This document shows positions 143-31,882 of a stretch of 32,064 nt of DNA, piece after piece. Origin of the DNA: Coriobacteriia bacterium (GTDB lineage: Bacteria > Actinomycetota > Coriobacteriia > Anaerosomatales > PHET01); contig JAXMKZ010000007.1 in NCBI GenBank assembly GCA_034370385.1, positions 1-32,064 of the forward strand, given 5' to 3'. The notes under the pieces are model-generated. The model was not told the origin of the DNA. It searched no databases and worked only from the letters and a program-made list of their open reading frames with translations. A program made the translations under genes and the position numbers. Position 1 is the stretch's first letter; the number at the start of each line of letters is the position of its first letter.

Positions 143-219
<77 letters not shown>

Positions 220-464: not shown

Positions 465-1313
465 ATGCACGACACAAAACGCGCCACGAGCGGGGTCTCG
501 CGACGCGCCTTCATCACCGGGGCGGGCGTGATGCTCGGAGCTGTTGTCGCTCCTGCGGTGATTCGGACGACTGAAGCATCCGCTGCCGCCCCGAAAGCTC
601 TCCCGTGGGCGTACACGCCGCAGGATCCCGACAAGCTCGCAAGGCGCGCCTACGAAGTCTTCTTCCAGTCCGGATGTTCAGAGGCGACCGCCTGGCCGCT
701 CATCGAAGCACTCGCTGCGGACACCAGCAACCCAGATCGTGAACTATGGGCGAGCATCCCGAAGAACGTGTTCGCCTACGGAGGTGCTGGCCTCAACGCC
801 TGGGGCACGGTATGCGGGACCCTCAACGGGTCGTCAGCCATCTTGAGCATGTGCGGTGGTCCGGCGACCATTATCGACGCGAACATGCGCTACTACGCTG
901 AGACGCCGCTCCCCACGAATCGTATCGACAACGCGTACCGCAGCGGCTGGCGACCGGTGAGTGGTCCCGCCCCCAAAATGAACGCGCCAACGACCACAGG
1001 ACACACTCAGCTCTGCCACGCATCGATCTCGGTGTGGACCACGATGACGGGGACGACCTTCAGCAGCGCGGAGCGCAAGGATCGGTGCGCCAAGGCTTCC
1101 CACGACCTCATGCGCAACACGGTCGTCCTTCTGAACCGGTGGGCCGCGGGCGAAGTGATACCCGCGCTGGTCCTGAGCGACGCCGAGAAGGCCTGCTCCC
1201 CTTGCCACTCCGGCAACGCGAAGGGCCGCATGGACTGCGACTCATGTCACGACGAAACCGCGACATCTGACGGCAGTGCGACCCTTGACGGCCACTCTGT
1301 GACGGCCTGGTGA
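465..1313 (+). CDS. Split-Soret-type cytochrome c, Tat-exported
   Basis: The 282-residue protein starts at an ATG preceded by AGGGGAGGAAAC. Its N-terminus has a twin-arginine signal (SRRAFITGAGVMLG, then a hydrophobic stretch ending near ASA), so it is probably exported folded. Two heme c motifs sit near the C-terminus, CSPCH at about 244-248 and CDSCH at about 258-262. Upstream are spaced cysteines (SGCSEATAW, GTVCGTLNG, SMCGG) of the kind seen in the C_GCAxxG_C_C family, to which split-Soret cytochromes belong. Known: the Desulfovibrio protein binds two stacked hemes per subunit; its physiological partner is unclear. Here the family resemblance is by motif and size. The gene overlaps the next one by a base, suggesting a two-protein extracytoplasmic redox unit. 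Confidence 0.8.
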   Translation: MHDTKRATSGVSRRAFITGAGVMLGAVVAPAVIRTTEASAAAPKALPWAYTPQDPDKLARRAYEVFFQSGCSEATAWPLIEALAADTSNPDRELWASIPKNVFAYGGAGLNAWGTVCGTLNGSSAILSMCGGPATIIDANMRYYAETPLPTNRIDNAYRSGWRPVSGPAPKMNAPTTTGHTQLCHASISVWTTMTGTTFSSAERKDRCAKASHDLMRNTVVLLNRWAAGEVIPALVLSDAEKACSPCHSGNAKGRMDCDSCHDETATSDGSATLDGHSVTAW

Positions 1314-2308
1314 TGACGATGACCTCGAAGAAGGCACTCACCATACTGGTTCTGGTCGCCGTCGCTGCTCTGGTCTCCGGGCTGCTCGCAACCAGTGCCC
1401 ATTCCGCCAGCTCGTACACGTACCGCTGCGATCGGTGTCACAGCGCCACGGGTGCGTTCTGCTTGATTGTCGCCGAATCTGGATCCACCGCTGACACCGT
1501 CACCTATGACGTGAGCGTCGCTCAGGGTCAAGGCGCGTGGGCGGTCTTCGATAACACCCGGCGTGTCGCGGGAGCCAAGAGCGCGTCGGGTTCCTTCACC
1601 GTACGTCGTGGCCGCCCGTACGACGTGATCGCCGTCGGTCCGCTGCTCTCGGTCGGGCACGTCAAGACCCGCGTCAGCCCGCCGGCCACACTCGCGACCG
1701 GCGTGTCAACGGCAACCCCCGATGCGATCGCGCCGACAACCATCTCCGATGTCCGCGCCGTCTACGGGGGACCGGCCACCATCGCGCTCACCGCCGAGGA
1801 CAACGGGGGCGGCTGGGGACTCGGCTACATCTACTACCAGCTGAACGGGCATCCCATCCGCATGACTACGCTTCTGCCCGGCCAGAGGAGCCACCGAGTC
1901 GAGCTACCGACGCTACCGTTGCCTGCAACCGGACGCAAGACGTACGAACTCACCTACTGGTCCCAGGACAACTACGGAAACGTCGAGGCGCAACGTAGTG
2001 CGACGTTCGTCATCGGGCGACCCACCGTGACCATCAAGCCTTCTGCCTCGACGGCTCGTGTGGGTTCTGCGCTGACGCTGAGCGGTGTGTTAGACCCTGG
2101 GGTCGCGGGCACCACGATCCAAGTGCTGGTCAAGAAGCCCGGGGCGACGCGTTTCGTGCCCCTCGCATCGGCGAAGACCTCAGCCGATCCGAGCGTGCCT
2201 TCAAAGTCACGTTGGAGCGTGTCCACGAAGGCCCTGCGGGGAACCACCCAGTACTACGCGATCAGCGGCACCGCAAAGTCCGCGGTGACCAAGGTCGTGG
2301 GACGCTAA
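1313..2308 (+). CDS. Secreted protein with one CxxCH motif and Ig-like domains
   Basis: The ATG start overlaps the cytochrome stop codon (TGATG), so translation is probably coupled; no separate Shine-Dalgarno is visible. The 331-residue product has a basic N-terminus and a hydrophobic signal (about residues 9-30) ending near SAHSA. It has a single heme-type motif CDRCH at about 39-43, directly after the predicted cleavage site. A variable region is followed by an Ig/fibronectin-like domain (about 145-240, with APTTISDV and ALTAEDNGGGW) and a second beta-rich domain (about 245-331, starting VTIKPSAST). There is no LPxTG or transmembrane anchor. I do not recognise a characterised homologue. A surface-exposed heme protein interacting with the split-Soret cytochrome is inference; CxxCH could instead bind metal. 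Confidence 0.6.
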   Translation: MTMTSKKALTILVLVAVAALVSGLLATSAHSASSYTYRCDRCHSATGAFCLIVAESGSTADTVTYDVSVAQGQGAWAVFDNTRRVAGAKSASGSFTVRRGRPYDVIAVGPLLSVGHVKTRVSPPATLATGVSTATPDAIAPTTISDVRAVYGGPATIALTAEDNGGGWGLGYIYYQLNGHPIRMTTLLPGQRSHRVELPTLPLPATGRKTYELTYWSQDNYGNVEAQRSATFVIGRPTVTIKPSASTARVGSALTLSGVLDPGVAGTTIQVLVKKPGATRFVPLASAKTSADPSVPSKSRWSVSTKALRGTTQYYAISGTAKSAVTKVVGR

Positions 2309-2369: not shown

Positions 2370-2732
2370 TCATCCCTGCGAGCCGCCTGACTCAGGTTCG
2401 CCCGCATAAAAGACCACGCTCACGTCCTCAAGAGTGATGATGCCGCTGGGAATCATGGCCGACCACACCTCCGCCAGCGCAGCGATGCGCGGCACATCGT
2501 CGATGACGACGACCATGACCGGGCAGTCGGTCGACATGCGAAGACCGTGTTTGGCCACATCGCGACTCGCGGCACCGAAACCCACCATGCCGCGCAAAGC
2601 GGTCGCACCTGCGCAGCCCTGGATTCGCGCCTGCTCGACGAGCGCTTGATAGAGCGGACGGTCCTCGTAGGTCTCGTCTTCTCCGACGTAGGCGGCAAGC
2701 CGCTTGGACGCCCCTGCAAGACTCCTGGTCAT
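2370..2732 (-). CDS. DUF190 family protein
   Basis: The ATG at 2732 is preceded by AAGGAG eight bases upstream and overlaps the coaBC stop as ATGA, which decides this start over a longer in-frame one. The 120-residue product has the DUF190 pattern: an N-terminal RLAAYVGEDE, the segment PLYQALVEQAR, then GCAGATALRGMVGFG, and a central DCPVMVVVIDD. Known: DUF190 proteins are small PII-like ferredoxin-fold proteins, often near crcB fluoride channels, with no settled function. Here the partner is coaBC and no crcB is present. A nucleotide- or ion-sensing role is inference only. Confidence 0.8.
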   Translation of the reverse strand: MTRSLAGASKRLAAYVGEDETYEDRPLYQALVEQARIQGCAGATALRGMVGFGAASRDVAKHGLRMSTDCPVMVVVIDDVPRIAALAEVWSAMIPSGIITLEDVSVVFYAGEPESGGSQG

Positions 2733-3958
2733 TCGCCAACTCCTTTCCGGCGCTCGCTCGCCTCTCGGGCGGACGGCGCGATACGATCCCACAGCGCGCG
2801 CGCAAGCGCCCGCTTCGACATGACAGGCAACTCTTCAGAACCGGATGCGTCTACGAGCCAGACCCGGTTGTGGTCACTGGCAAACCCCATCACCGGGTCG
2901 GACACGTCGTTGGCGACCACGAGATCGAGCGACTTGGCAGCGAGCTTGCCGCGCGCGCTCGCCACGGGGTCTCCCGTCTCAGCCGCAAAGCCCACCAGCA
3001 ATCGCCCTTCCTTGCGAACACCGAGAGCGGCGAGTATGTCCGGATTTCGCTCGAGTTCGACGACGAGGGGCGCTTCATCTTTGTGCTGCTTCACGCTCGA
3101 GCGCACGGCGGGGCGAAAGTCCGAGATCGCGGCACTCGCCACGACCACATCGCACGATTCGAAGGCGTCGTCGACCGCGGCAGCCATCTCGAGCGCCGTG
3201 GTGACCCGGACGGTCGAGACGTTGAAGGGATCGGGCAGCACGGTCGGGCCGCTCACCAGCACGACATCGGCCCCGCGCCGTGCTGCCTCTTCGGCGATGG
3301 CGAAGCCGGTCTTGCCGCTGGATGCGTTGCCGATGAAGCGCACGGGGTCGATGGCCTCGCGAGTGGGGCCGGCGGTCACAAGCACGCGCACGCCTCGAAT
3401 ATCCCGCGCGCGATGCGCCTCGGCCAGAATCGCCTCGGTGATCACCGATAGCGCCGCCAGCCTGCCCTCCCCCACGTCGCCACAGGCAAGCTCGCCGCTC
3501 TCCGGCTCGATCACGACGACGCCGCGCGCGCGGAGCGCCTCGACATTGGCCTGCGTCACCGGGTTGCGCCACATGTGCACGTTCATCGCCGGCGCCACCA
3601 CAAGCGGCGCCTCCGTAGCCAGCGCAACGGTCGTGAGCAGATCGTCGGCGCGCCCCATGGCGAACTTCGCCATCACGTTTGCGGTAGCGGGGACGACGGC
3701 GAACACGTCCGCCTCCTCGGCGAGCGAGGTGTGGTGCACCCGCGCCGCGGGCTCGTCCCACAGCGAGACCCCAACCGGCTCTCCGGTGAGTGCGCGAAAC
3801 GTCGTCGGGCCGACGAAGCGCGTCGCGTTCTCGGTCATGACGACCTTCACCCGACAGCCGGCGCGCATGAGTTCTCGCACCAACTCGCATGCTTTGTACG
3901 CAGCGATGCAGCCGGTGACGCCGACTACAACGGTGGGTGTTGTGGTTCTTTGGGTCAT
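2729..3958 (-). CDS. coaBC: Bifunctional phosphopantothenoylcysteine decarboxylase / phosphopantothenate-cysteine ligase
   Basis: The 409-residue cytoplasmic protein carries out two consecutive steps of coenzyme A synthesis. The CoaC flavoprotein half (about 1-185) has the N-terminal GVTGCIAAYKA, the PAMNVHMW motif and the active-site loop ELACGDVGEGRL with its cysteine. The CoaB half (about 190-400) has VTAGPTREAIDPVRFIGN, SSGKTGFAIA and a KQHKDEAP lysine region, followed by ERNPDIL. The start is the ATG at 3958; a longer frame upstream lacks family similarity. No Shine-Dalgarno precedes it, but a -10-like box ends 6 nt before the ATG, suggesting a leaderless message. In many actinobacteria coaBC follows rpoZ; here it lies about 15 kb away from rpoZ. 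Confidence 0.93.
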   Translation of the reverse strand: MTQRTTTPTVVVGVTGCIAAYKACELVRELMRAGCRVKVVMTENATRFVGPTTFRALTGEPVGVSLWDEPAARVHHTSLAEEADVFAVVPATANVMAKFAMGRADDLLTTVALATEAPLVVAPAMNVHMWRNPVTQANVEALRARGVVVIEPESGELACGDVGEGRLAALSVITEAILAEAHRARDIRGVRVLVTAGPTREAIDPVRFIGNASSGKTGFAIAEEAARRGADVVLVSGPTVLPDPFNVSTVRVTTALEMAAAVDDAFESCDVVVASAAISDFRPAVRSSVKQHKDEAPLVVELERNPDILAALGVRKEGRLLVGFAAETGDPVASARGKLAAKSLDLVVANDVSDPVMGFASDHNRVWLVDASGSEELPVMSKRALARALWDRIAPSAREASERRKGVGE

Positions 3959-20434: not shown

Positions 20435-21013
20435 CTACGTCGCGAGACGCCGACTGCCTGGCGAGTACACCTCGACTCCGGAAGCGCACAGCGCACACGA
20501 CGCGGGGTCCCAGGACTCCACCTCAAGACGAAGTAGAGGCCACGCAGGGCTTGAGAACGCTTTGTCTCCACCCCGGTCGATGAGCGAGACCACACCGACC
20601 ACCCGGGCACCAGCCGCCTCTACCAAGGCGATGACCTCGGCGACGCTGCCACCCGTTGTGACCACGTCTTCAACGACAAGAACACGGGCGCCCTCAGGGA
20701 CCTTGAACGCGCGACGAAAGACCATGCGTCCGTTCTCGCGCTCGGTGAAGATGAACTTGACCCCGAGGGCCTGCGCCACCGCAAAGCCGATGACAAGCCC
20801 TCCAACCGCCGGGGCTGCGACAAGGTCGATATCGAGATCCTCCGGCAGGCCCGCGACCGCCGCCTGCGCGAGGCGCGTGGTCAGTGCAGGGTCCTCCAGG
20901 ATTCGGGCGCACTGGACGTAGGTGTCGCTGTGACGGCCGCTCGTGAGCACGAAGTGACCGTCCAACACCGCGTCAGCGGCCTTGAGCGCATCGACGATCT
21001 CAGCCTGAGTCAT
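20435..21013 (-). CDS. pyrE: Orotate phosphoribosyltransferase
   Basis: The 192-residue enzyme converts orotate and PRPP to OMP. The ATG at 21013 fits the family start (TQAEIVDALKAADAVLDGHF); a longer frame overlapping pyrF is not conserved. Motifs are LTSGRHSDTYVQC, AAPAVGGLVIGFAVAQ and the PRPP loop VLVVEDVVTTGGSV. A C-terminal CALCASGVEVYSPGSR contains a cysteine pair. Starts 7 bp after the pyrF stop and is the last pyr gene before the mihF promoter. Confidence 0.94.
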   Translation of the reverse strand: MTQAEIVDALKAADAVLDGHFVLTSGRHSDTYVQCARILEDPALTTRLAQAAVAGLPEDLDIDLVAAPAVGGLVIGFAVAQALGVKFIFTERENGRMVFRRAFKVPEGARVLVVEDVVTTGGSVAEVIALVEAAGARVVGVVSLIDRGGDKAFSSPAWPLLRLEVESWDPASCALCASGVEVYSPGSRRLAT

Positions 21014-21020
21014 CGTGGTG

Positions 21021-21758
21021 TCAGGCACCTTCGAACACCCCTTCCATCTCTTGCAGGATCTGTGCGGCGGCGTACGCGGGCGACGCGGCATCTGTCACGG
21101 GCCGGCCGATCACCAGATGGCTCGCACCGGCATTGAGCGCTGAGGTCGGCGTGGCGATGCGCGACTGATCGCCTGCGTCCGCCCAGAGAGGGCGTACGCC
21201 CGGTGTGACGACGAGCGCGGATTCGCCCACGACCGTTCTGACGATGGCCGCCTCCTTGGGCGAGCACACGACGCCGGCGACACCGGCACCCTTCGCCAGG
21301 TTCGCAAGCCTCTCGACCTGTTCGACCGCACCAGTGCCTACGCCGATATCGGGCAGCTCCGCATCGGACATGCTCGTGAGAACTGTGACGGCGATGACCG
21401 CCGGGGCGGACACTCCCGCGTCCCGAGCACCCGCCTCGGCACCGCGCACCGCAGCCTCGATCATCGCCCGACCCCCGGCAGCGTGAACCGTCAACATGCG
21501 CGCACCGAGCGCGGCGACCTGTCGTGCGGCTCCTTCGACCTGATGCGGGATGTCGTGGAGCTTCAGGTCCAGGAATATCTCGAAACCGAGAGCGCGGAGC
21601 CGCTCGACGATCTCGGGGCCCTGCTCGTAGAAGAGCGTCATGCCGACCTTGAGCCATCGGACCTCGTCGACGAGTGTGCGTGCGAGTGCCATGGCCTGGT
21701 GACCGTCGCAATCGAGTGCGATGATGAGCCTGTCTGAAGCGTCGGTCGTCGCGTCCAT
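21021..21758 (-). CDS. pyrF: Orotidine 5'-phosphate decarboxylase
   Basis: The 245-residue enzyme decarboxylates OMP to UMP. The ATG at 21758 is chosen because GGGGAG sits eight bases before it; another ATG at 21776 overlaps the pyrD stop but has no such site. Motifs are RLIIALDCDG, WLKVGMTLFYEQG and the catalytic LDLKLHDIPHQVEG. Later segments are LTVHAAGG, VTPGVRPLWADAGDQSR and HLVIGRPVTDA, all typical of the short (type I) PyrF. It acts directly after PyrE, encoded next. Confidence 0.95.
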   Translation of the reverse strand: MDATTDASDRLIIALDCDGHQAMALARTLVDEVRWLKVGMTLFYEQGPEIVERLRALGFEIFLDLKLHDIPHQVEGAARQVAALGARMLTVHAAGGRAMIEAAVRGAEAGARDAGVSAPAVIAVTVLTSMSDAELPDIGVGTGAVEQVERLANLAKGAGVAGVVCSPKEAAIVRTVVGESALVVTPGVRPLWADAGDQSRIATPTSALNAGASHLVIGRPVTDAASPAYAAAQILQEMEGVFEGA

Positions 21759-21775
21759 TTCTTCGTCTCCCCGCA

Positions 21776-22702
21776 TCACGCCTCCACAGCGCCTATCAGG
21801 TCGCGGACGCGACTGATTCCCTGCTCGCGGCAGTACTCTTCGATTCCATCGATGACTCGCATCGTCGCGGTCGGGTCGACGAAGTTCGCCGTACCAACTG
21901 CAGTCGCGCTGGCCCCGGCCAGCAGGAACTCGATCGCATCGCGACCGGTCATGATGCCCCCCATACCGAGTACCGGCACGGTTACCGCGCGCGCCACTTG
22001 CCACACCATCCGCACGGCGACGGGCCGAATCGCAGGTCCCGACAACCCCCCGAACCCGCGGGCAAGGTGGGGTCGCTTCGTGTCCACATCGATGGACATC
22101 CCGAGCAAGGTGTTGATGAGGGACACCGCGTCGGCCCCGGCCGCCTCGACAGCACGGGCGATCTCCGTGATATCGGTGACGTTGGGACTGAGCTTCACGA
22201 TGAGCGGCCGCCGGGTGGCCGCGCGACAGGCGCCGACGACCTGATCCGCGGCGACACACGACGTCCCGAACGCCAAACCGCCCTCGTCCACGTTCGGGCA
22301 CGATATGTTCACCTCGTAGGCGCTGACGACCGACTCTCTCTCCAGCCGCTCTACGACCGCGACGTAGTCCTCCACCGAATGGCCACTCACGTTGACGATG
22401 ACGGGAAGCCCCGCAGCATGTTGGGCCAGCCAGACGAGGTCACGCTCGCAGAACGCATCGACTCCGGGGTTCTGAAGGCCGATGGAGTTGAGCATGCCCG
22501 ACGGCGTCTCGGCGATGCGCGGACTGGCGTTGCCCTGCCACGGCTGCGCGGATACACCTTTTGTCACCAATGCGCCCAGACGGGTCAAGTCGACGAAATC
22601 AGCGAACTCCCGGCCGGACGCGAAGGTCCCCGACGCCGTGACCACGGGGTTCTTCAGTTCGAGGTCACCAAGTCTCACCGTCAAGTCGAGGTCTATACTC
22701 AT
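21776..22702 (-). CDS. pyrD: Dihydroorotate dehydrogenase, class 1B catalytic subunit
   Basis: The ATG at 22702 follows GGGGGAGG seven bases upstream and gives 308 residues. FMN-binding and substrate motifs are visible: [23 protein letters not shown] and [11 protein letters not shown] (with the catalytic cysteine used by class 1 enzymes). They are followed by [32 protein letters not shown] and [11 protein letters not shown]. The cysteine plus the adjacent pyrK make this a class 1B, NAD-linked enzyme. An 87-bp gap separates it from pyrK, in which I see no feature. Confidence 0.95.
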
Positions 22703-22789
22703 GGTCGACCTCCCCCGTGTCGGCGAGCCGACGCCCGTGGGTCGACCGGGGTGCATCCCCGGGGAGCAGCGGTCTGCGACACCGGCGGC

Positions 22790-23602
22790 CTAGTGCTTCG
22801 GCGGAATCTCCGACGCATTCCAGACCACCTCCTCTGCATCGAACACCGGACCGTCCACGCATGCCCTCTTCTGCCCCGTGACCGTCGTGACCACACACGA
22901 CAGACAGGCGCCGATCCCGCAGGCCATCAAACGCTCAAGCGACACCTGACACGCCACGCTAGCGGCACGCGCCTGGTCGGCGACAATACGCTGCATGGCC
23001 TCAGGACCGCACACGTAGACCACATCGAATCGCTCTTCGCGCAAGAGTCGATCCGACACCGCTGTCACGAAACCACGAGTACCTGAGCTACCATCATCGG
23101 TGGCGACCTCGACGCGACGCGTAACGTCTTCGAAGAGCGACCGCGCCACCAAGCGCGTTGCGGTAGGTGCACCCATCGCGACCACCGCCGCGACGCCTCG
23201 GCCAGCGAGCGCTTCAGCGAGCATCCCCATGGGCGCCGCACCGAGACCGCCGGTCACGAGCAAAGCGTGCGTAGCGTCGACCGGAATATCCCACCCACGC
23301 CCAAGGGGACCGACGACGTCAAGGGACCTATCTCCCGGTTCCACGAGTGCCAGGCGTGCGGTTCCCGCGCCGAGCACCTGGTAGAGGATCTCGATGCGCG
23401 TGCCGGATGCCCGGTGGACCGAGAACGGGCGCCGCAGCAACTCAGAGGTGTCGCGGCCGATGCGCAGATGGACGAACTGACCCGGCGCAGTACGCCTGGC
23501 GGTCACGGGCGCCTCGAGTATCAGCAGCCCGACGCCTGTGGTGACGCGCTCGTTCGCAACGACGGTGACGGCCTCGAGGGTGGGATGGATCGCAGTGGTC
23601 AC
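22790..23602 (-). CDS. pyrK: Dihydroorotate dehydrogenase electron transfer subunit
   Basis: The GTG at 23602 overlaps the carB stop as GTGA and gives 270 residues. The FAD domain has [10 protein letters not shown] and RRPFSVH. The NAD domain has [12 protein letters not shown] and VYVCGPEAM. The C-terminal [2Fe-2S] site has [13 protein letters not shown] and a fourth cysteine in RACVDGPVF. It passes electrons from PyrD flavin to NAD. Its order before pyrD, as in Bacillus, supports the 1B complex. Confidence 0.94.
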
Positions 23603-26600
23603 GCCGAGATCCTGTCGCCGCACTCATGCTGCTCGAAGTCCTGCAGCGCGCACACACCCAGACGCCCTTCCTTGACCGCCTCGATCGCCTGTACGACCGC
23701 CTGGGCCGCAGGGATCGTGGTGATGTTGGTGATGCCGTGGTGAATCGCGGCAGAGCGGATATGGTAACCGTCGCTGCGAGTCTCTTGGCCGAACGGTGTG
23801 TTGATCACGAGCTGAACCTTGCCGTTGGCGATCTCGTCGAGCACGTTGGGGCGCCCTTCGTGCTTCTTCATGACCTCCGTGACGGGGATTCCGGCCGCGC
23901 GCAAGGTGCGGGCCGTGCCCTTCGTCGACATGATCGAGAAGCCGAGCAGTTGCAGGTGCTTCGCAACGCCCACCACCTGACGCTTGTCCCGGTCGCTGAC
24001 TGAGACGAACGCCGTCCCACCGGTCGGAAGCGAGTAGTCGATGGCGAGTTGGCTCTTGGCGTACGCGGCCGGGAAGTCCGCCGCGACGCCCATGACCTCA
24101 CCGGTCGACTTCATCTCGGGACCAAGCACGCTATCGGCGCCGGGGAAGCGTCCGAACGGCATGACCGCCTCCTTGACGCAGAACCTCGTGAGCTCGCGGT
24201 CGTCGGCCGGCAGATTCATAGCAGCAAGCCTCTCGCCCGCCATGACGCGCGCCGCGACCTTGGCGAGCGGAACACCCGTCGCCTTGCTCACAAACGGCAC
24301 CGTTCTGCTCGCCCGTGGATTGACCTCGAGCACGTATACCTGGTCGTCCTTGACCGCAAACTGCACGTTCATGAGGCCAACCACCCCGAGGCGCAGCGCG
24401 AGTGCGCGCGCATGGTCGCGGATGCGCTCGATGACCTCGCCACCCAGTGAGTAAGGCGGGATGCAGCACGCCGAGTCGCCTGAGTGGATTCCTGCCTCCT
24501 CGATATGCTCCATGATGCCGCCGACGTAGACCGACTCTCCGTCGCACACCGCGTCGACATCGACCTCGATCGCGCCTTCCAGGAACCGATCGAGCAACAC
24601 CGGGTGATCCGGCGAGATGCGCGTGGCCTCGGCCATGTACTTCTCCAGGTACTGCTCGTCGTAGGCGATCACCATGCCACGACCGCCCAGCACGTAGCTC
24701 GGGCGCACGAGCAGCGGAAAGCCGATTCGGCGGGCGACCGCGAGAGCCTCATCGAAGCTCGATGCTGTACCTGCGTCCGGGTAGTCGATACCGAGCTCAT
24801 CGAGGATCGGAGCGAATCTACTGCGGTCCTCCGCCAGATCGATCGCCTCGGGCTTGGTCCCCATGATGGGGACGCCTGCCGCCTCGAGCGCCCGGGCGAG
24901 CTTGAGCGGGGTCTGACCCCCGAATGTCACGACGACACCGATGGGCTCTTCGACGTCAGCGATGTCCATGACGTCCTCAAACGTGAGTGGCTCGAAGTAG
25001 AGCCGGTCTGAGGTGTCGTAGTCGGTCGAGACGGTCTCGGGGTTGCAGTTCACCATCACCGTCTCGTAGCCGGCGTCATGGAGCGCGTAGGAGGCGTGCA
25101 CGCAGCAGTAATCAAACTCGATGCCCTGGCCGATGCGGTTCGGCCCGGCCCCCAGTATCATCACCCGGGGCCTCGTGGCGGGAGCAACCTCGTCCTCATC
25201 CTCGTAGGTCTTGTAGTAGTACGGCGTGAACGCCGCGAACTCAGCGGCACACGTGTCAACGGACTTGAATGTCGGTCGGCATCCTACCGCCTTGCGTACC
25301 GCGCGAACGCTCGCCTCGGTCGACCCCGTCAGGTGCGCTATCTGCACATCCGAAAGACCGTGCTGTTTGGCGCGCCGCAGCTCATCGACGGTGAGTCCGT
25401 CCAGCGAGCGACCCGACAGGGACCGCTCTACGTCGATGGTCGCGGCAAGCCGCCTCAGAAACCACCTGTCGATGTGGGTGATCTCATTGAGTTCGTCGAC
25501 CGAACGACCACGGCGAAGCGCCTCCGCCACGTAGAACGCCCGGTGCTCGTTCGGTACAGCGAGGAACTCGTCGAACTTATGCTCTTCGAACACGTCCTTG
25601 CCATCAGAACCCAGACCGCCGCGCCCGTTCTCAAGCGAGCGCATCGCCTTGCCAAGGGCCTCTTCGAACGTGCGACCGATGGCCATGACCTCGCCGACGC
25701 TCTTCATGCGCGTCGTGAGCGTCTCGTCGGTTCCTCGAAACTTCTCAAACGCCCACCGCGGCACCTTGACCACGGTGTAGTCGATGGAGGGCTCGAAGCA
25801 GGCGGGCGTCTCCCGGGTGATGTCATTGTCGATCTCATCGAGCGTGTACCCGACGGCAAGCTTCGCAGCGATCTTCGCGATGGGGAAGCCGGTTGCCTTG
25901 GAGGCCAGCGCGCTCGAGCGGGAGACCCGCGGGTTCATCTCGATGACGACCATGCGCCCGTCATCGGGATTGATTGCGAACTGGACGTTGGAGCCGCCGG
26001 TCTCGACGCCGATCTCGCGCAGAATCGCAATGGATGCGTCGCGCATCTCCTGGTACTCGCGGTCAGTGAGCGTCTGCGCCGGCGCTACGGTGATAGAGTC
26101 GCCGGTGTGCACCCCCATGGCATCGAAGTTCTCGATGGAGCACACGATCACCGCGTTGTCGTTGATGTCGCGCATGACCTCCATCTCGAACTCTTTCCAG
26201 CCGATGACACTCTCCTCCACCAGGATCTGGGTCACCGGCGACAGCGCGAGTCCGTGCATGACGATCTCGCGAAACTCCTCGGCGTTATAGGCGATTCCGC
26301 CGCCCGCGCCGCCCATCGTGAAAGCAGGCCGAATGACCACGGGGAAGCCAAGCGTATCGGCGATGGCCGCCGCCTGCTCCAGAGTCTCGGCGTAGTCGCT
26401 CTTGGGCACCTCAAGGCCGATGGCCCCCATCGCCTTTGAGAAGAGCTGGCGGTCCTCGCCCTTCTTGATGGCCTCAAGCTTCGCCCCGATGAGTTCGACT
26501 CCATACGACTCCAGGATGCCCGCCTCAGCGCACGCCACCGCACAGTTCAGCCCGGTCTGCCCGCCGAGCGTGGGTAGCAACGCGTCGGGCCGCTCGGCGG

Positions 26601-26835
26601 CGAGTATCTTCTCGACGAACTGGGGCGTGATGGGCTCGACGTAGGTACGCGAGGCGAGTCCCGGGTCGGTCATGATCGTGGCCGGGTTACTGTTTATGAG
26701 CACGACCTCATAACCGTCGTCCATGAGGACCTTACAGGCCTGGGCGCCCGAGTAGTCGAACTCGCACGCCTGCCCGATGACGATCGGACCCGAACCGATC
26801 ACGAGGATCTTCTTGATATCGTCCCTGCGCGGCAT
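23599..26835 (-). CDS. carB: Carbamoyl-phosphate synthase, large subunit
   Basis: The 1078-residue protein is full length for the family (about 1070). It starts at an ATG with AAGGAG five to six bases upstream. Two homologous ATP-grasp halves are visible: the first starts [23 protein letters not shown] and has [18 protein letters not shown]. The second has [19 protein letters not shown] and [21 protein letters not shown]-terminal MGS-like allosteric domain (about 940-1078) includes [16 protein letters not shown]. With CarA it makes carbamoyl phosphate for UMP and arginine. It is separated from carA by the stress-protein gene, which is unusual. Confidence 0.97.
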
Positions 26836-26850
26836 ATCGCTCCTTGTCGC

Positions 26851-27675
26851 CTACGGTTGGATTACAACGGGGCACGGTGCTTCTTGCATGAGTCGCATCG
26901 ACACACTTCCGAGGAACCCCTTTGTGAGGGTGCCGCGACCGCGCCGCCCGGTGATGAGGCCTGTCGCCTCCACTTCGTCGACGTAGGCGAGCACCGCCTC
27001 TGCGGGATCGCCTTCGACGAGCGCGGTGACCACCTCGACCCCGTGCTCCGCCGTCGCCATAGCCGCAAGTCCGGCAAGCTGCGCCTCGGCATCGCCGATC
27101 TCGTCGCCGAGGGCGTGCACAAGGTGTATCCGACCCATCGCCTGACGAGGACGCTCGAACGCAGAAAGGAAGGCCCGCATCGCGGAGGCCGACAGGTCGG
27201 TCGGCACGACAAGCCGCTTGCCGAAGTCGCAGGCGACCTGCTTGGCATGCTCCGGCGACTCCAGCAGGTCGAACCGGACGGTCATGGTGCGCTCGTCTCC
27301 GCGCAACGCCAGGTCTTCAGAGACCGAGCCCGAGAAGAGATAGTCGACGAGCGACTTTCCCTCGGTGCCACAGCACACGACGTCCACATGGGCCTGATGC
27401 GCCAGCGCAGAGATCTCCTCATACACCGAGCCCATAGCAACGCGAACCTCGACCGACATGCCGCAGCTTCGGTATCCCTCGACCATGCCGAGTAGCTTGG
27501 TGCGGGCCCGCTCGACCTCCGCGATTATGACGGGGGCCTCCTGGCCTGAACTGTCGACGACATGCGCCACCAGGAGTTCCTTAATGCCCTGAGCGGACAG
27601 GCCGCAGGCGAAGGCGAGCATCTTGTCGTCGCGCGAACCGAACGACACAGGCATGAGCATCTTGCGGATGGCCAT
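26851..27675 (-). CDS. Tandem universal stress protein
   Basis: The 274-residue protein has two Usp domains, about 1-140 and 160-274. The first starts RKMLMPVSFGSRDDKM and has a diverged nucleotide loop (CCGTEGKSLVDYLFSGSVSE). The second has GRRGRGTLTKGFLGSVS and ends CPVVIQP, matching the ATP-binding G-2x-G-9x-G pattern. The ATG is 4 bp past the carA stop, with a GAGGAGAG site. It sits between carA and carB in the pyr operon, so it should be made together with pyrimidine enzymes. Known Usp proteins respond to starvation or energy stress; a link to nucleotide level is inference. Confidence 0.88.
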   Translation of the reverse strand: MAIRKMLMPVSFGSRDDKMLAFACGLSAQGIKELLVAHVVDSSGQEAPVIIAEVERARTKLLGMVEGYRSCGMSVEVRVAMGSVYEEISALAHQAHVDVVCCGTEGKSLVDYLFSGSVSEDLALRGDERTMTVRFDLLESPEHAKQVACDFGKRLVVPTDLSASAMRAFLSAFERPRQAMGRIHLVHALGDEIGDAEAQLAGLAAMATAEHGVEVVTALVEGDPAEAVLAYVDEVEATGLITGRRGRGTLTKGFLGSVSMRLMQEAPCPVVIQP

Positions 27676-27678
27676 CGT

Positions 27679-28956
27679 CTATCTCTCCTCTTCGATCTCG
27701 GGCGCCGTGACCTGGCGTGCACCATTCGAATCCATGAGCTGGGTGAACTCGCCGAACAAGTAGTGTGCGTCGTGAGGCCCGGGAGCCGCCTCGGGGTGGT
27801 ACTGGACCGAGAACGCGGGCACGTCGAGCAGCCGGATGCCCTCGACGGTCATGTCATTCAGGTTGACGTGGGTGAGCTGGACCCGTCCGAACCTCTCACT
27901 CAGAACGACGGGTGCGACATCGGCCTGAACCCAGGCGCTCAGATCCCCCGCGTCATGGGCAAGCCCGCCACTCGCGGACACATCGAGCTCACCGACGCTC
28001 GCGAAGTCGACGCAGAATCCGTGGTTCTGGCTCGTGATCTCGACGCGCCCGTTAAGCAGATTCATGACCGGCTGGTTGCCGCCGCGATGCCCGTACTTGA
28101 GTTTGTACGTGGATGCGCCCACAGCCAGAGACAGCATCTGATGCCCGAGACAGATCCCGAACACGGGCACCGTGCCAAGCAGTTCGCCAAGCGTCGCGTA
28201 CAGGTACCCGACCGCGGATGGATCCCCGGGCCCGTTGGCTAGGAACACGCCGTCAGGATTGAGAGCCAGCACCTCGGCGGCCGACGTCGTCGGAGGGACG
28301 ATGCGCACCGAGCACCCCGCCTCGGCGAGATTGCGGGCGATGTTGTACTTGATGCCGGAGTCGAAGGCCACCACACGGTAGTCAGGGCGCACGGGCAAGA
28401 CGCCGGTGTCGACCGGTCGACCGCAGCCGGGGACGACCTCGCCCCACTCGTAGGCTTCGGTGACCGCAACCTCGGCGACCAGATCGCGTCCCACCAGCCC
28501 GGGAGCCGCCTTAGCCTTGGCAACGAGCGACGCGGCGTCCAGATCGATCGTCGAGATCACGACGTTCATCGCTCCTCGCTCGCGGATGTGACGCACTATC
28601 CTGCGCGTATCTACCCCCTCTACCGCGACGACTCCGTGACGGGTCAGGAACTCAGGGAGGCTCTCCTCGCTACGCCAGCTTGAGGGTTCGTGGCACATCT
28701 CGCGCACGATGACTCCGGTCGCGAAGCACCCCCGTGATTCCATGTCCACGCCGTTGACGCCGTAGTTGCCGATGTGCGGCGAGGTCATCGTTATGACCTG
28801 CCCCGCGTAGCTCGGATCGGTGAAGACTTCCTGGTAGCCCGACATCGACGTGTTGAAGCACGCCTCGCCCACGGCTTCTCCGGGGGCGCCGCACGACCAT
28901 CCGGTGAGCACGAGGCCATCCTCGAACGCGATTGCGGCGGGTGTCCGTTCAGTCAC
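27679..28956 (-). CDS. carA: Carbamoyl-phosphate synthase, small (glutaminase) subunit
   Basis: The GTG start directly follows the pyrC stop (TAG GTG), with AAAGGTGG upstream. The 425-residue protein has the CarA N-terminal domain (about 1-190; CFNTSMSGYQEVFTDPSYAGQ, SPHIGNYG) and a class I glutamine amidotransferase domain (about 215-405). The nucleophile is in GICLGHQM, and the His/Glu pair in QYHPEAAPGPHD. It supplies ammonia to CarB. At 425 residues it is longer than the usual 360-390, mostly by a loop near 185-205 and a polar tail of about 20 residues. Confidence 0.96.
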   Translation of the reverse strand: MTERTPAAIAFEDGLVLTGWSCGAPGEAVGEACFNTSMSGYQEVFTDPSYAGQVITMTSPHIGNYGVNGVDMESRGCFATGVIVREMCHEPSSWRSEESLPEFLTRHGVVAVEGVDTRRIVRHIRERGAMNVVISTIDLDAASLVAKAKAAPGLVGRDLVAEVAVTEAYEWGEVVPGCGRPVDTGVLPVRPDYRVVAFDSGIKYNIARNLAEAGCSVRIVPPTTSAAEVLALNPDGVFLANGPGDPSAVGYLYATLGELLGTVPVFGICLGHQMLSLAVGASTYKLKYGHRGGNQPVMNLLNGRVEITSQNHGFCVDFASVGELDVSASGGLAHDAGDLSAWVQADVAPVVLSERFGRVQLTHVNLNDMTVEGIRLLDVPAFSVQYHPEAAPGPHDAHYLFGEFTQLMDSNGARQVTAPEIEEER

Positions 28957-30249
28957 CTAGTCGACCACCTTTCCGTTACGTAGGGCGAAACGCCCACCGA
29001 CCAGCACCTCAGACGCCTTCCCCAGTAGTGAGCTACCCAGAAACGCCGAGTTTGACGAGCGACTCTCGAAGAGCGCCGGAGTCACCTCCACCCGGGCCTC
29101 GGGATCGATGATCGTGATGTCGGCGGGCATGCCCGCCTCAAGACGAAGTTCAGGCAATCCGAGCGCTGCGCGCGGACCCTGCGCCATCAACCGCACGAGA
29201 TCCTTCCATTCCAGCCGCTCTGAGGCCACCAGATGCGTGATGACCAGCGCAAGCGCCGTCTCCAGACCGGTGGTGCCGAACGGAGCGATCTCGAACTCCA
29301 GCGCCTTCTCGTGGCTGGCATGCGGAGCATGGTCGGTGGCTATCGCGTCGATCGTACCGTCGAGCAGTGCGACGATGAGCGCCTCCCGGTCCCCGGCCGT
29401 GCGCAGGGGCGGGTTCATCTTGAGATTCGTGTCGTAGCCTGTGTCCAGCACATCCTCGTCAAGGAACAGGTGGTGCGGAGTGACTTCGCACGTCACTGCT
29501 ATGCCGCGCGCCTTTGCCTCACGAACCAGCTCGATGGAGCGCCCGGTCGAAAGGTGAGCGAGGTGTACCCGGCAGCCGGTGAGTTCAGCCAAGGCGATAT
29601 CGCGTGCGACCATCGTCTCCTCGCCTGCGGCCGGCCAGCCCGGCAGTCCCAGCCGAGTCGAGACCGCCCCCTCGTTGACCACCCCTTTGCCGACCAGCGC
29701 AAGATCCTCGCAGTGGCTGATCACGGTGGTTCCGAACTGCTTCGCGTAGTCCATGACGAGCCGGGCCATGCCGGCGTCGGCGACACCGTGCCCGTCATCG
29801 GAGAACGCCACGGCGCCCTCCGCGACCATGTCACCGATCTCGGCGAGTGCCGTACCCTTCTGACCGGCCGTGCACGCGCCGATGACGTGAACGCGCACCG
29901 CACCTGCGCTCTCGGCCCGCTCGGCAAGGAAGCGGACGGTGCTGCCGGTGTCACACACGGGCCGGGTGTTGGGCATCGCGCACACCGCGGTATACCCGCC
30001 ATGAGCTGCTGCGCGCGTCCCGCTGCGCACATCTTCCTTGTACTCGAAGCCCGGCTCACGCAGGTGCGTGTGGACATCCACCAGGCCGGGCACGATCACC
30101 TTCTCGGCACACTCGACCGTGACTCCTTTGGGAATCGTGAGGTCGGGGCCGATCTCGACGATCACGCCATCACGCACGATCACGTCGGCGACTTCGTCCA
30201 ACCCCACCTGGGGGTCGACCACCCGACCGCCTCTAAGCAGCACCGCCAC
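28957..30249 (-). CDS. pyrC: Dihydroorotase
   Basis: The 430-residue amidohydrolase closes carbamoyl aspartate to dihydroorotate. Zinc and substrate motifs are PGLVDVHTHLREPG, ISHCED, HLAHLSTG and IATDHAPH; AFSDDGHGV and NPPLR are also present. This is the class I bacterial type. The GTG at 30249 is chosen because GGGAGG lies eight bases upstream; GTGs at 30258 and 30243 are alternatives. It overlaps the end of pyrB by 17 bp, implying coupling in the pyr operon. Confidence 0.95.
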   Translation of the reverse strand: MAVLLRGGRVVDPQVGLDEVADVIVRDGVIVEIGPDLTIPKGVTVECAEKVIVPGLVDVHTHLREPGFEYKEDVRSGTRAAAHGGYTAVCAMPNTRPVCDTGSTVRFLAERAESAGAVRVHVIGACTAGQKGTALAEIGDMVAEGAVAFSDDGHGVADAGMARLVMDYAKQFGTTVISHCEDLALVGKGVVNEGAVSTRLGLPGWPAAGEETMVARDIALAELTGCRVHLAHLSTGRSIELVREAKARGIAVTCEVTPHHLFLDEDVLDTGYDTNLKMNPPLRTAGDREALIVALLDGTIDAIATDHAPHASHEKALEFEIAPFGTTGLETALALVITHLVASERLEWKDLVRLMAQGPRAALGLPELRLEAGMPADITIIDPEARVEVTPALFESRSSNSAFLGSSLLGKASEVLVGGRFALRNGKVVD

Positions 30250-31174
30250 CGCCCTCACCTCCCAAAAGCAGATACATCGCAGCCATGCGGACCGCGACTC
30301 CGGAGTTGACCTGGTTAAGAACGACCGAGCGATCCGAATCCGCTACGGCGGCGCTGATCTCGACGCCCCGGTTCATGGGGCCCGGGTGCATGATGAACGC
30401 GGAGCTCCTCATCTTCGCCAGGCGCGTCTCATTCATGCCGAACAGTCGCGAGTACTCGCGCACACTGGGAAACGGCATCCCCTCGGCACGCTCCATCTGG
30501 ATACGCAGCATGTAGGCGACGTCCAGGTCTCCGATCACCTCGTCGAGCGAGGTCACCGCCTCAGCCCCTAAGACATCGGGGCGCGCAGGCATCAGTGTCG
30601 GCGGTGCGATGATGATCGGCGTCGCCCCGACAGCGCGCAGCGCCGGTACCAGTGAACCGGCCACGCGGGAATGTGCGATGTCTCCGACGATACCCACGGT
30701 GAGGCCTTCGAGCCGTCCGGCCCGTTCGCGCATGGTGAACAGATCGAGGAGCGCCTGCGACGGGTGCTCGTGCATCCCATCACCGCCGTTGATGATGTGG
30801 GCGTCCATATGCTTGGCAAGAATCCGGGGGGCACCGGCGTACTTGTGGCGCACGACCACGAGGTCGCACGCCATGGCCGACAAGGTGGCAGCGGTGTCGG
30901 CGAGCGACTCGCCCTTGACCGTGGCCGACGTGCTGGCCGAGAAGTTCACTCCGTCGGCCGAAAGACGCTTCGCGGCGATCTCGAAACTGGTGCGCGTCCG
31001 CGTGGACGGCTCGAGGAAGAGGTTGATGACCGTCCGGCCGCGCAGAGTCGGCAGCTTCTTGATGCGCCGCTCGTTGACTTCCTTGAACGATTCGGCCGTG
31101 TCCAGAATCGACATGATGTCGTCGGTGGTGAGGTCCCGTATGTCGATGATGTGACGAGACGAGAGCATGGGCAT
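30233..31174 (-). CDS. pyrB: Aspartate carbamoyltransferase, catalytic chain
   Basis: The 313-residue enzyme joins carbamoyl phosphate and aspartate. It shows the carbamoyl-phosphate loop [11 protein letters not shown], the HPSQALLDL segment, [12 protein letters not shown] and the C-terminal [10 protein letters not shown]. No regulatory PyrI gene is present, as usual outside enteric bacteria. The ATG at 31174 directly follows the pyrR stop; the ATG at 31168 is better spaced from the GGGGGGAG site and may be the true start. Confidence 0.95.

Positions 31175-31882
<708 letters not shown>

What the first reader, a model, noticed from the sequence alone, without database searches (positions are those of the whole stretch)
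465..2308. Split-Soret cytochrome coupled to a single-CxxCH Ig-domain secreted protein
A Tat-exported cytochrome of the split-Soret type overlaps the start codon of a Sec-type secreted protein with CDRCH right after the signal peptide and beta-sandwich domains behind. I know no characterised system with this pair. It could be an extracellular electron-transfer or redox-sensing unit on the cell surface. One protein appears to go through Tat and the other through Sec.
Basis: partly seen in the sequence, partly recalled or inferred. Interest (0 to 1): 0.55.

Follow-up and report, generated by a model that had tools for sequence, protein, structure and literature searches.

The report
Surface cytochrome pair with selenium cousins
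Two neighbouring bacterial genes encode an exported iron-and-haem protein and a surface protein that probably holds it and may pass on its electrons, and relatives of the first protein appear to use the rare amino acid selenocysteine at one key spot, which hints that this poorly understood cytochrome is an enzyme rather than a simple wire.

Summary
Window 465-1313 encodes a Tat-type split-Soret cytochrome: Foldseek's only match under E 0.001 is 1H21 (E 1.9e-7; VIA Z 21.4). It overlaps the start of a secreted protein (1310-2308) with one CDRCH and beta-sandwich domains.

The pairing is conserved; the partner's haem is not. In the window's clade 4 of 4 loci have a downstream OmpL47-type beta-sandwich protein, but only 2 of these 4 partners have CxxCH. 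The sister clade lies beside proteins with several haem motifs (8 of 8, two of them cut by contig ends).

The unexpected result is in relatives. Eight homologues in the same order have an in-frame TGA exactly where the window has Cys71. Cys71 is one of four non-haem cysteines that, with one His, are kept in 23 of 23 sequences; one haem site is missing in 5 of 23. A SECIS-like hairpin follows the TGA in 7 of the 8. Two of the eight genomes show no SelB.

Best reading: a surface redox pair in which the four-Cys/His centre does the work, the haems are wires, and the partner is anchor and, here, relay. Substrate, direction and haem loading are untested.

The parts
465..1313 (+). Split-Soret-type di-haem cytochrome, Tat-type signal, 282 aa (stop TGA 1311-1313)
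675..677 (+). Codon of Cys71 (TGT), the position that is TGA in 8 relatives of the same order
813..815 (+). Codon of Cys117, second invariant non-haem Cys
1014..1019 (+). Codons of Cys184-His185, invariant non-haem CH
1086..1088 (+). Codon of Cys208, fourth invariant non-haem Cys
1194..1208 (+). CSPCH haem site (residues 244-248); the site missing in 5 of 23 sequences
1236..1250 (+). CDSCH haem site (residues 258-262); C258, C261 and H262 kept in 23 of 23 sequences
1310..2308 (+). Secreted surface protein: signal sequence, CxxCH-beta domain, OmpL47-type beta-sandwich, C-terminal beta domain
1427..1441 (+). CDRCH mono-haem site of the partner (residues 40-44)
1769..2014 (+). OmpL47-type beta-sandwich region (residues 154-235), the part shared by all four partners
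143..219 (-). tRNA-Pro(GGG), upstream neighbour of the two-gene unit
2370..2792 (-). DUF190 gene on the opposite strand, downstream neighbour (convergent)

Best explanation
A two-gene unit for a cell-surface redox pair in an actinobacterium. Protein 1 is a split-Soret-type protein whose working site is an invariant non-haem centre (Cys71, Cys117, Cys184-His185, Cys208), probably binding iron; its two c-type haems carry electrons to or from that site. Needing a metal centre assembled in the cytoplasm would explain Tat export. Protein 2, exported by Sec, is a beta-sandwich surface protein that docks protein 1 at the wall. In this species it also carries an N-terminal mono-haem beta domain as an extra relay towards the surface electron-transfer network.

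Shown here: homology and fold, gene overlap, conserved pairing, the conservation pattern, haem-maturation genes in the genome. Inferred: metal binding, haem loading, contact of the two proteins, direction of electrons, and a reductase-like role towards an acceptor outside the membrane.
For: Fold of 1H21, whose title reports a 'novel iron centre'. The four Cys and the His are kept in 23 of 23 sequences, while one haem site is missing in 5 of 23. TGA replaces exactly Cys71 in 8 of the 22 genes among these 23. The window clade (4 rows, support 95/98) has a downstream beta-sandwich partner in 4 of 4 loci (window, L020, L021, L057); L020's partner carries three CW_binding_2 stretches. In the sister clade 8 of 8 loci lie beside a protein with several CxxCH: 12-16 in six, two each in L026 and L029, which are cut by contig ends. 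In L029 that protein has CxxCH-beta and beta-sandwich stretches like the window partner's plus a further CxxCH in one frame. The partner's CxxCH-beta domain keeps CxxCH in 28 of 30 matches read, out of 33 listed; of the other two, one match starts after that region and one looks unrelated. The own genome has two ResB loci in clusters with multihaem genes.
Against: 2 of 4 partners have no CxxCH, so a relay in the partner is not general. In seven more distant loci of the phylum no beta-sandwich or CxxCH neighbour was seen within about 3.5 kb (L124 has a 153-aa secreted-looking protein downstream that I did not scan), so the fold can work alone. The three other genomes of the window's family have no split-Soret hit: the gene is patchy. 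The partner model is poor, no complex was predicted, and there is no biochemistry. D. alaskensis mutants in split-Soret genes showed no fitness phenotype (PMC4215793, passage).
Confidence: 0.6

Rival explanations
1. The partner is only an anchor or scaffold. Its CxxCH is a side function and carries no electrons for the cytochrome.
For: The beta-sandwich is the part shared by all four partners; two of the four have no CxxCH; L020's partner has cell-wall-binding repeats. Of the 33 listed places of the CxxCH-beta domain in the order, only 3 lie beside one of the 12 split-Soret places (searches compared).
Against: CxxCH is kept in 28 of the 30 matches read, and the two exceptions do not cover the site or look unrelated. 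In L029 the same modules share a frame with a further CxxCH, beside a split-Soret gene.
Confidence: 0.35
2. Protein 1 is a dedicated thiol/selenol enzyme, for example a reductase or detoxification enzyme for an oxyanion or metalloid, rather than part of a respiratory electron path. The haems only feed its active site.
For: Invariant four-Cys/His set with TGA at one residue. PF09719 matches 7 of 10 members of A3 (window included; best E 1.8e-7), and TIGR01909, named '(seleno)protein', matches 5 of 10. One haem can be lost while the centre stays. In L057, of the window's clade, an ACR3 arsenite efflux gene, two ArsR/SmtB regulators, an ArsE-type thioredoxin and an ArsP-type permease lie upstream, the second regulator about 110 bases before the cytochrome. 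In L026 and L029 a PhnD-like binding protein, kinase and regulator lie directly upstream, an arrangement like the arsenic-oxyanion sensors AioX/ArrX (PMC5908839, start of abstract in listing).
Against: All 12 places in the window's order lie beside a surface beta-sandwich or a protein with several CxxCH, which points to an electron path. Metalloid-type or oxyanion-sensor-type neighbours were seen in 3 loci only and not in the window.
Confidence: 0.45
3. A redox-sensing unit on the cell surface.
For: Two sister-clade loci have a two-component system directly upstream of the cytochrome.
Against: No signalling domain in the window pair; a binding protein upstream suggests that the kinase senses a ligand and controls the cytochrome, not the reverse (inference).
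Confidence: 0.07
4. The two genes are neighbours by chance and work separately.
For: Each family also occurs without the other.
Against: Stop-start overlap in the window and the same order in 4 of 4 loci of the clade, three of them in different families of the order.
Confidence: 0.03

Closest known systems
Split-Soret cytochrome c of Desulfovibrio desulfuricans (PDB 1H21, NF047622)
   Same: Same fold (Z 21.4), two C-terminal CxxCH, the same four non-haem Cys and the CH motif
   Different: 22-26% identity depending on the alignment, below the NF047622 equivalog cut-off; coupled here to a surface beta-sandwich partner; relatives in the same order carry TGA at one of the four Cys
C_GCAxxG_C_C putative redox-active proteins (PF09719, TIGR01909), known to include selenoproteins
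   Same: Four-Cys pattern; weak but recurrent profile matches (7 of 10 and 5 of 10 members of A3)
   Different: The window protein is below the Pfam gathering score and adds C-terminal haems; the two selenoprotein reviews list C-GCAxxG-C-C forms and, in the passages I read, no split-Soret cytochrome
Known selenoprotein c-type cytochromes (multihaem ExtKL, octahaem tetrathionate-reductase type)
   Same: A c-type cytochrome with Sec is not new as such: both are listed in PMC13188914 (passages)
   Different: Other families; in those passages Sec is not reported at a conserved non-haem metal site of a di-haem protein
OmpL47-type domain surface proteins (NF047446)
   Same: Profile match in the window partner and in the other three partners
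   Different: Window partner below cut-off (27 against 40 bits); it carries an N-terminal CxxCH domain with no library match there (Pfam at E up to 1; NCBIfam)
Cell-wall-bound multihaem cytochromes of Gram-positive bacteria
   Same: Sister-clade neighbours join CW_binding_2 or S-layer-like repeats and 12-16 CxxCH in four loci; in two others DUF5648 takes that place
   Different: The window unit has three haem sites in two proteins, not a multihaem wire

Membership tests
Split-Soret cytochrome fold | Fold of PDB 1H21 | tested here: met
   Foldseek E 1.9e-7, prob 1.00; VIA Z 21.4, rmsd 3.2, 207 aligned; the haem end of the model is of low confidence
Split-Soret cytochrome fold | Two C-terminal c-haem motifs per monomer | tested here: met
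   CSPCH 244-248, CDSCH 258-262
Split-Soret cytochrome fold | Non-haem cysteines available for the iron centre | tested here: met
   C71, C117, C184, C208 and H185 shared with 1H21, 23 of 23 sequences; that they are the ligands is inferred
Split-Soret cytochrome fold | Split Soret band from stacked haems in a dimer | not testable with these tools
   Needs a spectrum or structure of the protein
NF047622 equivalog (Desulfovibrio split-Soret cytochrome c) | Curated score of 400 bits | tested here: not met
   86.3 bits: same fold family, not this equivalog
PF09719 C_GCAxxG_C_C | Pfam gathering score of 27 bits | tested here: not met
   18.9 bits in the window protein; filed as a relative only
Selenoprotein (window protein) | In-frame TGA at the redox Cys | tested here: not met
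   TGT at 675-677: the window has the Cys form
Selenoprotein (relatives) | In-frame TGA aligned with a conserved Cys, conserved sequence on both sides | tested here: met
   8 genes: 7 of 11 in alignment A1 plus L054
Selenoprotein (relatives) | SECIS-like hairpin after the TGA | tested here: met
   Apical stem 5-6 of 6 pairs in 7 TGA genes against 1-4 of 6 in 5 Cys genes; outer stem hardly differs (4-5 against 3-4 of 5); the structure was taken from L022 and is not the best fold in L029. L054 does not share it (3 of 6) and shows another short hairpin by eye
Selenoprotein (relatives) | SelB and tRNA-Sec in the genome | tested here: inconclusive
   SelB over cut-off in 6 of 8 such genomes, not in G061 and G045, whose two RF01852 places looked up each were tRNA-Ser; tRNA-Sec confirmed in G044 and G058 and not looked up in the other four
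OmpL47-type domain (NF047446) | Curated score of 40 bits | tested here: not met
   27.0 bits in the window partner; 77.9 in L057's partner
c-type cytochrome (partner) | CxxCH in an exported protein, with haem ligation genes in the genome | tested here: met
   CDRCH after an apparent signal sequence; two ResB loci
c-type cytochrome (partner) | Covalent haem actually bound | not testable with these tools
   Needs haem stain or mass spectrometry

The most novel reading that the evidence does not exclude
Split-Soret cytochromes are not wires but a family of thiol/selenol metal-centre oxidoreductases. Their four-Cys/His centre, more conserved than one of their haems, is the active site, and in the window's order one of its four cysteines is selenocysteine in eight genes: a selenoprotein family that the reviews and searches used here did not show, in which Sec would ligate an iron centre wired by haems to the cell surface, perhaps to reduce a metalloid oxyanion. 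The window pair is the Cys-type branch, in which the multihaem wire is exchanged for a beta-sandwich surface partner with a single haem.
Probability: 0.45. Interest if true: 0.72.

Novelty: new variant of a known kind. Interest (0 to 1): 0.55.

Why it matters
The split-Soret cytochrome has had a structure with a 'novel iron centre' since 2003 and, in what I could find, no known function. Natural Cys/Sec exchange at one residue of the conserved non-haem set marks where the chemistry probably happens and gives a direct mutational test. Conserved pairing with surface proteins gives an assayable setting: electron exchange at the surface of Gram-positive anaerobes. Arsenic-type and oxyanion-sensor-type neighbours in three relatives give candidate substrates. 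The partner's N-terminal CxxCH-beta domain, matched in 20 of 69 genomes of the order (one of them, G059, looks unrelated), had no Pfam match in the window protein at E up to 1 and looks like an undescribed mono-haem family.

Tried and rejected
Promoter and terminator scan of 1-2800: 0 promoter-like sites; 1 terminator-like site inside the partner gene (mean 1.3 in shuffles), not used. Rfam on the whole window: only the tRNA. Sequence searches of the PDB with the partner gave nothing convincing (best E 0.17; profile of A2 best 0.005, glycosidase beta-domains). Cytochrome f as an analogue of 'CxxCH then beta-sandwich' is recalled only; no claim is made. A second ligand for the partner's haem: no His, Met or Cys outside CxxCH is shared by 30% or more of the 30 matches, so it is open. 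VIA matches to 2-methylcitrate dehydratase (Z 6.1-6.3) were set aside as middling. The RF01852 model also rings for tRNA-Ser, so I trusted only places that ARAGORN called tRNA-Sec. The Sec/Cys difference needs at least 2 changes on the tree of 15 sequences; L054 and the phylum loci are not in that tree, and I draw no direction. 'Haem in both proteins' as the rule of the pair fails, since two of four partners lack CxxCH.

Odds: after a late check I raised the enzyme rival from 0.40 to 0.45 and sensing from 0.05 to 0.07, because of the neighbours found there; the rest is unchanged.

Literature: searches. No paper of the held library had both 'split-Soret' and 'selenoprotein'. Seen as passages: PMC8840924, PMC5701242, PMC4215793, PMC8105010, PMC13188914, PMC9312934, PMC9686372. 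PMC5908839: start of the abstract in a listing only. The 2003 paper on the iron centre was not read; ligand details are not used. Subscription papers were mostly out of reach.
Full report
WHAT IS THERE. The two-gene unit lies between a tRNA-Pro on the minus strand (143-219) and a convergent DUF190 gene (2370-2792). The contig begins at base 1, so nothing further upstream is known. Gene 1 (465-1313) encodes 282 aa with a twin-arginine motif and two C-terminal CxxCH. It matches NF047622, split-Soret cytochrome c, at E 2.3e-24, far below that model's equivalog cut-off, and PDB 1H21 by phmmer at 1.1e-14 and by profile at 9.2e-37. A model (pLDDT 73, weak in the signal region and haem tail) finds 1H21 as the only Foldseek match under E 0.001 (E 1.9e-7; next 0.88) and Z 21.4 over 207 residues. 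Gene 2 (1310-2308, or ATG 1313) overlaps the stop codon of gene 1. It has a signal sequence by eye, CDRCH, and beta-strands throughout (low-confidence model, pLDDT 58.5; Foldseek matches to tandem FnIII/Ig chains). NF047446 (OmpL47-type) matches residues 154-235 at 27 bits, below cut-off.

IS THE PAIR CONSERVED? In the window's order, 10 of 69 genomes carry a split-Soret gene by single-sequence search, in 11 places; the three other genomes of the window's family have none. A profile search of 396 genomes of the class finds 11 genomes and 12 places, all in this order. A scan of named genomes gives 8 loci, among them a permafrost palsa MAG (L057) and Thermincola ferriacetica (L061). On a tree of 15 sequences the window groups with G046:C62, G064 and L057 at 95/98. 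All four have, directly downstream on the same strand, a secreted beta-sandwich protein: overlapping in the window, then gaps of about 80, 76 and 49 bases. NF047446 matches all four partners, only L057's above cut-off. CxxCH is present in two of four (window CDRCH, L021 CQGCH). L020's partner instead carries three CW_binding_2 stretches; L021's also carries an InlB-type repeat, PF18998. The pairing is real; the partner's haem is optional.

THE SISTER CLADE (8 rows, 85/97). Six loci have an upstream protein with 12-16 CxxCH (L022 and L028 cut at the edge), with CW_binding_2 in L022, L027 and L028, a weak S-layer model match in L024 (54 bits against 650), and DUF5648 in L023 and L025. ResB/CcsA-like genes follow downstream in these six, by my reading. 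The other two (L026, L029) have a downstream protein with two CxxCH seen before the contig ends; in L029 it shows CxxCH-beta and beta-sandwich stretches like the window partner's and a further CxxCH in one frame. Directly upstream, both L026 and L029 have a PhnD-like binding protein (PF12974), a HAMP/HisKA/HATPase kinase and a LytTR response regulator. A more distant gene in the order, L054, has an upstream gene with five CxxCH, and Thermincola has a tandem pair behind a seven-CxxCH gene. So 12 of 12 places in the order have a surface or haem-protein neighbour. In seven further loci of the phylum (7 of 396 genomes matched, the window's included; one more place was a fragment, not examined) no such neighbour was seen within about 3.5 kb (gene calls by a simple script; L124 has a 153-aa secreted-looking neighbour, not scanned). 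G046 holds both a Cys gene with a beta-sandwich partner and a TGA gene with a multihaem neighbour.

SELENOCYSTEINE IN RELATIVES. Seven of the 11 genes in alignment A1 have one in-frame TGA, at the column of window Cys71; L054 has one too: 8 genes. The window has TGT (675-677). After the TGA a hairpin, taken from L022, with 20 nt between TGA and loop, forms 5-6 of 6 apical pairs in 7 of 7 TGA genes of the sister clade against 1-4 of 6 in the 5 Cys genes compared; the outer stem hardly differs (4-5 against 3-4 of 5), and in L029 another fold is clearly better. These bases also encode conserved residues, so part of the conservation is protein-driven; but the Cys gene of the same clade (L026) has 3 of 6. 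L054 does not share this stem (3 of 6). SelB is over cut-off in 51 of 69 genomes of the order, the window's included, and in 6 of the 8 with TGA genes; G061 and G045 (98% and 96% complete) lack it, and the tRNA-Sec candidates looked up there are tRNA-Ser. That counts against Sec in these two, unless the genes fall in assembly gaps. The window's genome has SelB beside a tRNA-Sec. Sec in c-type cytochromes is not new as such: PMC13188914 lists a multihaem ExtKL and an octahaem family.

WHICH PART DOES THE WORK? In an alignment of 23 sequences (the window, 10 others from A1, L054, L057, two from L061, seven from the phylum, and the 1H21 chain, residues 15-237), the four non-haem cysteines and His185 are kept in 23 of 23, the second haem motif in 23 of 23, and the first haem's Cys-His in 18 of 23 (the 5 losses are L122-L126). 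1H21 is titled 'a novel iron centre'. I infer that the four-Cys/His set is that centre or its active site. This would also explain Tat: a metal centre put in before export. PF09719, putative redox-active proteins that include selenoproteins, matches 7 of the 10 members of A3.

A LEAD ON SUBSTRATE. In L057, of the window's clade, an ACR3 arsenite efflux gene (451 bits, cut-off 283), two ArsR/SmtB regulators, an ArsE-type thioredoxin and an ArsP-type permease lie upstream; the second regulator ends about 110 bases before the cytochrome. The PhnD-like sensor sets of L026 and L029 resemble the AioX/ArrX arsenic-oxyanion sensors (PMC5908839, start of abstract only). These are three loci of those examined; the window shows nothing of the kind. 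It is a lead, not a finding.

THE PARTNER'S HAEM DOMAIN. A search with its first part matches 20 of 69 genomes of the order (G059's match looks unrelated). Of 33 places listed I read the 30 with loci: 28 have CxxCH in the matched part; of the other two, one match starts downstream of it and one looks unrelated. No other His, Met or Cys is shared by 30% or more. Three of the 33 places lie beside a split-Soret gene: the window, G064:C151 and G045:C44. The window protein has no Pfam match at E up to 1, and five relatives scanned had no match over a gathering score.

SETTING. The genome encodes two ResB loci, each among CcsA-like and multihaem genes; one frame there has 42 CxxCH in 2,903 residues and is cut at the edge of the stretch. 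Two cultivated Anaerosomatales, a Coriobacteriia order to which I think this genome is close (inference; a locus of the order is titled Coriobacteriia), have 18 and 17 multihaem cytochromes, and one depends on Fe(III) (PMC9686372, passages). Elsewhere the split-Soret gene of D. desulfuricans was lower with NO (listed change -1.74; PMC5701242), those of D. alaskensis lacked a phenotype (PMC4215793), and in Pyrodictium one goes with a formate-dehydrogenase cytochrome b (PMC8105010): passages only.

CONCLUSION. Best reading: a surface redox pair; a split-Soret-type protein with a catalytic or electron-entry metal centre, and a beta-sandwich anchor that in this species bears a haem site. Direction and substrate are open. 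The most novel element lies outside the window: probable selenocysteine at the window's Cys71 position in relatives, not seen in the passages read of two selenoproteome reviews nor in one search.

Noticed in passing
L022, L023, L024, L025, L027, L028, L029, L054: Split-Soret cytochrome genes with an in-frame TGA at the conserved Cys, a probable selenoprotein family
   Followed up: yes
L026:5348-8611 and L029:2279-5707 (minus strand): PhnD-like binding protein, histidine kinase and LytTR response regulator directly upstream of a split-Soret gene in two genomes
   Followed up: partly
L057:20-4876: Arsenic-type genes (ArsP-type permease, ACR3, two ArsR/SmtB, ArsE-type thioredoxin) upstream of the palsa split-Soret pair; Hdr-like genes downstream by reading only
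   Followed up: partly
L032:7454-7813 and other places: Small secreted proteins (about 120 aa) made of a signal sequence, one CxxCH and a beta domain, without a Pfam match in the one scanned: a likely undescribed mono-haem family
   Followed up: partly
L103:1-8712 (G000:C19): Very large multihaem protein in the window's genome, 42 CxxCH in the 2,903 residues seen, cut at the edge of the stretch
   Followed up: no
L122-L126: Split-Soret relatives that keep the four Cys and His but lack the first haem motif
   Followed up: partly
window 20435-31825, minus strand: Genes that look like a pyrimidine biosynthesis cluster (pyrR, pyrB, pyrC, carA, carB, pyrK, pyrD, pyrF, pyrE), by reading only
   Followed up: no
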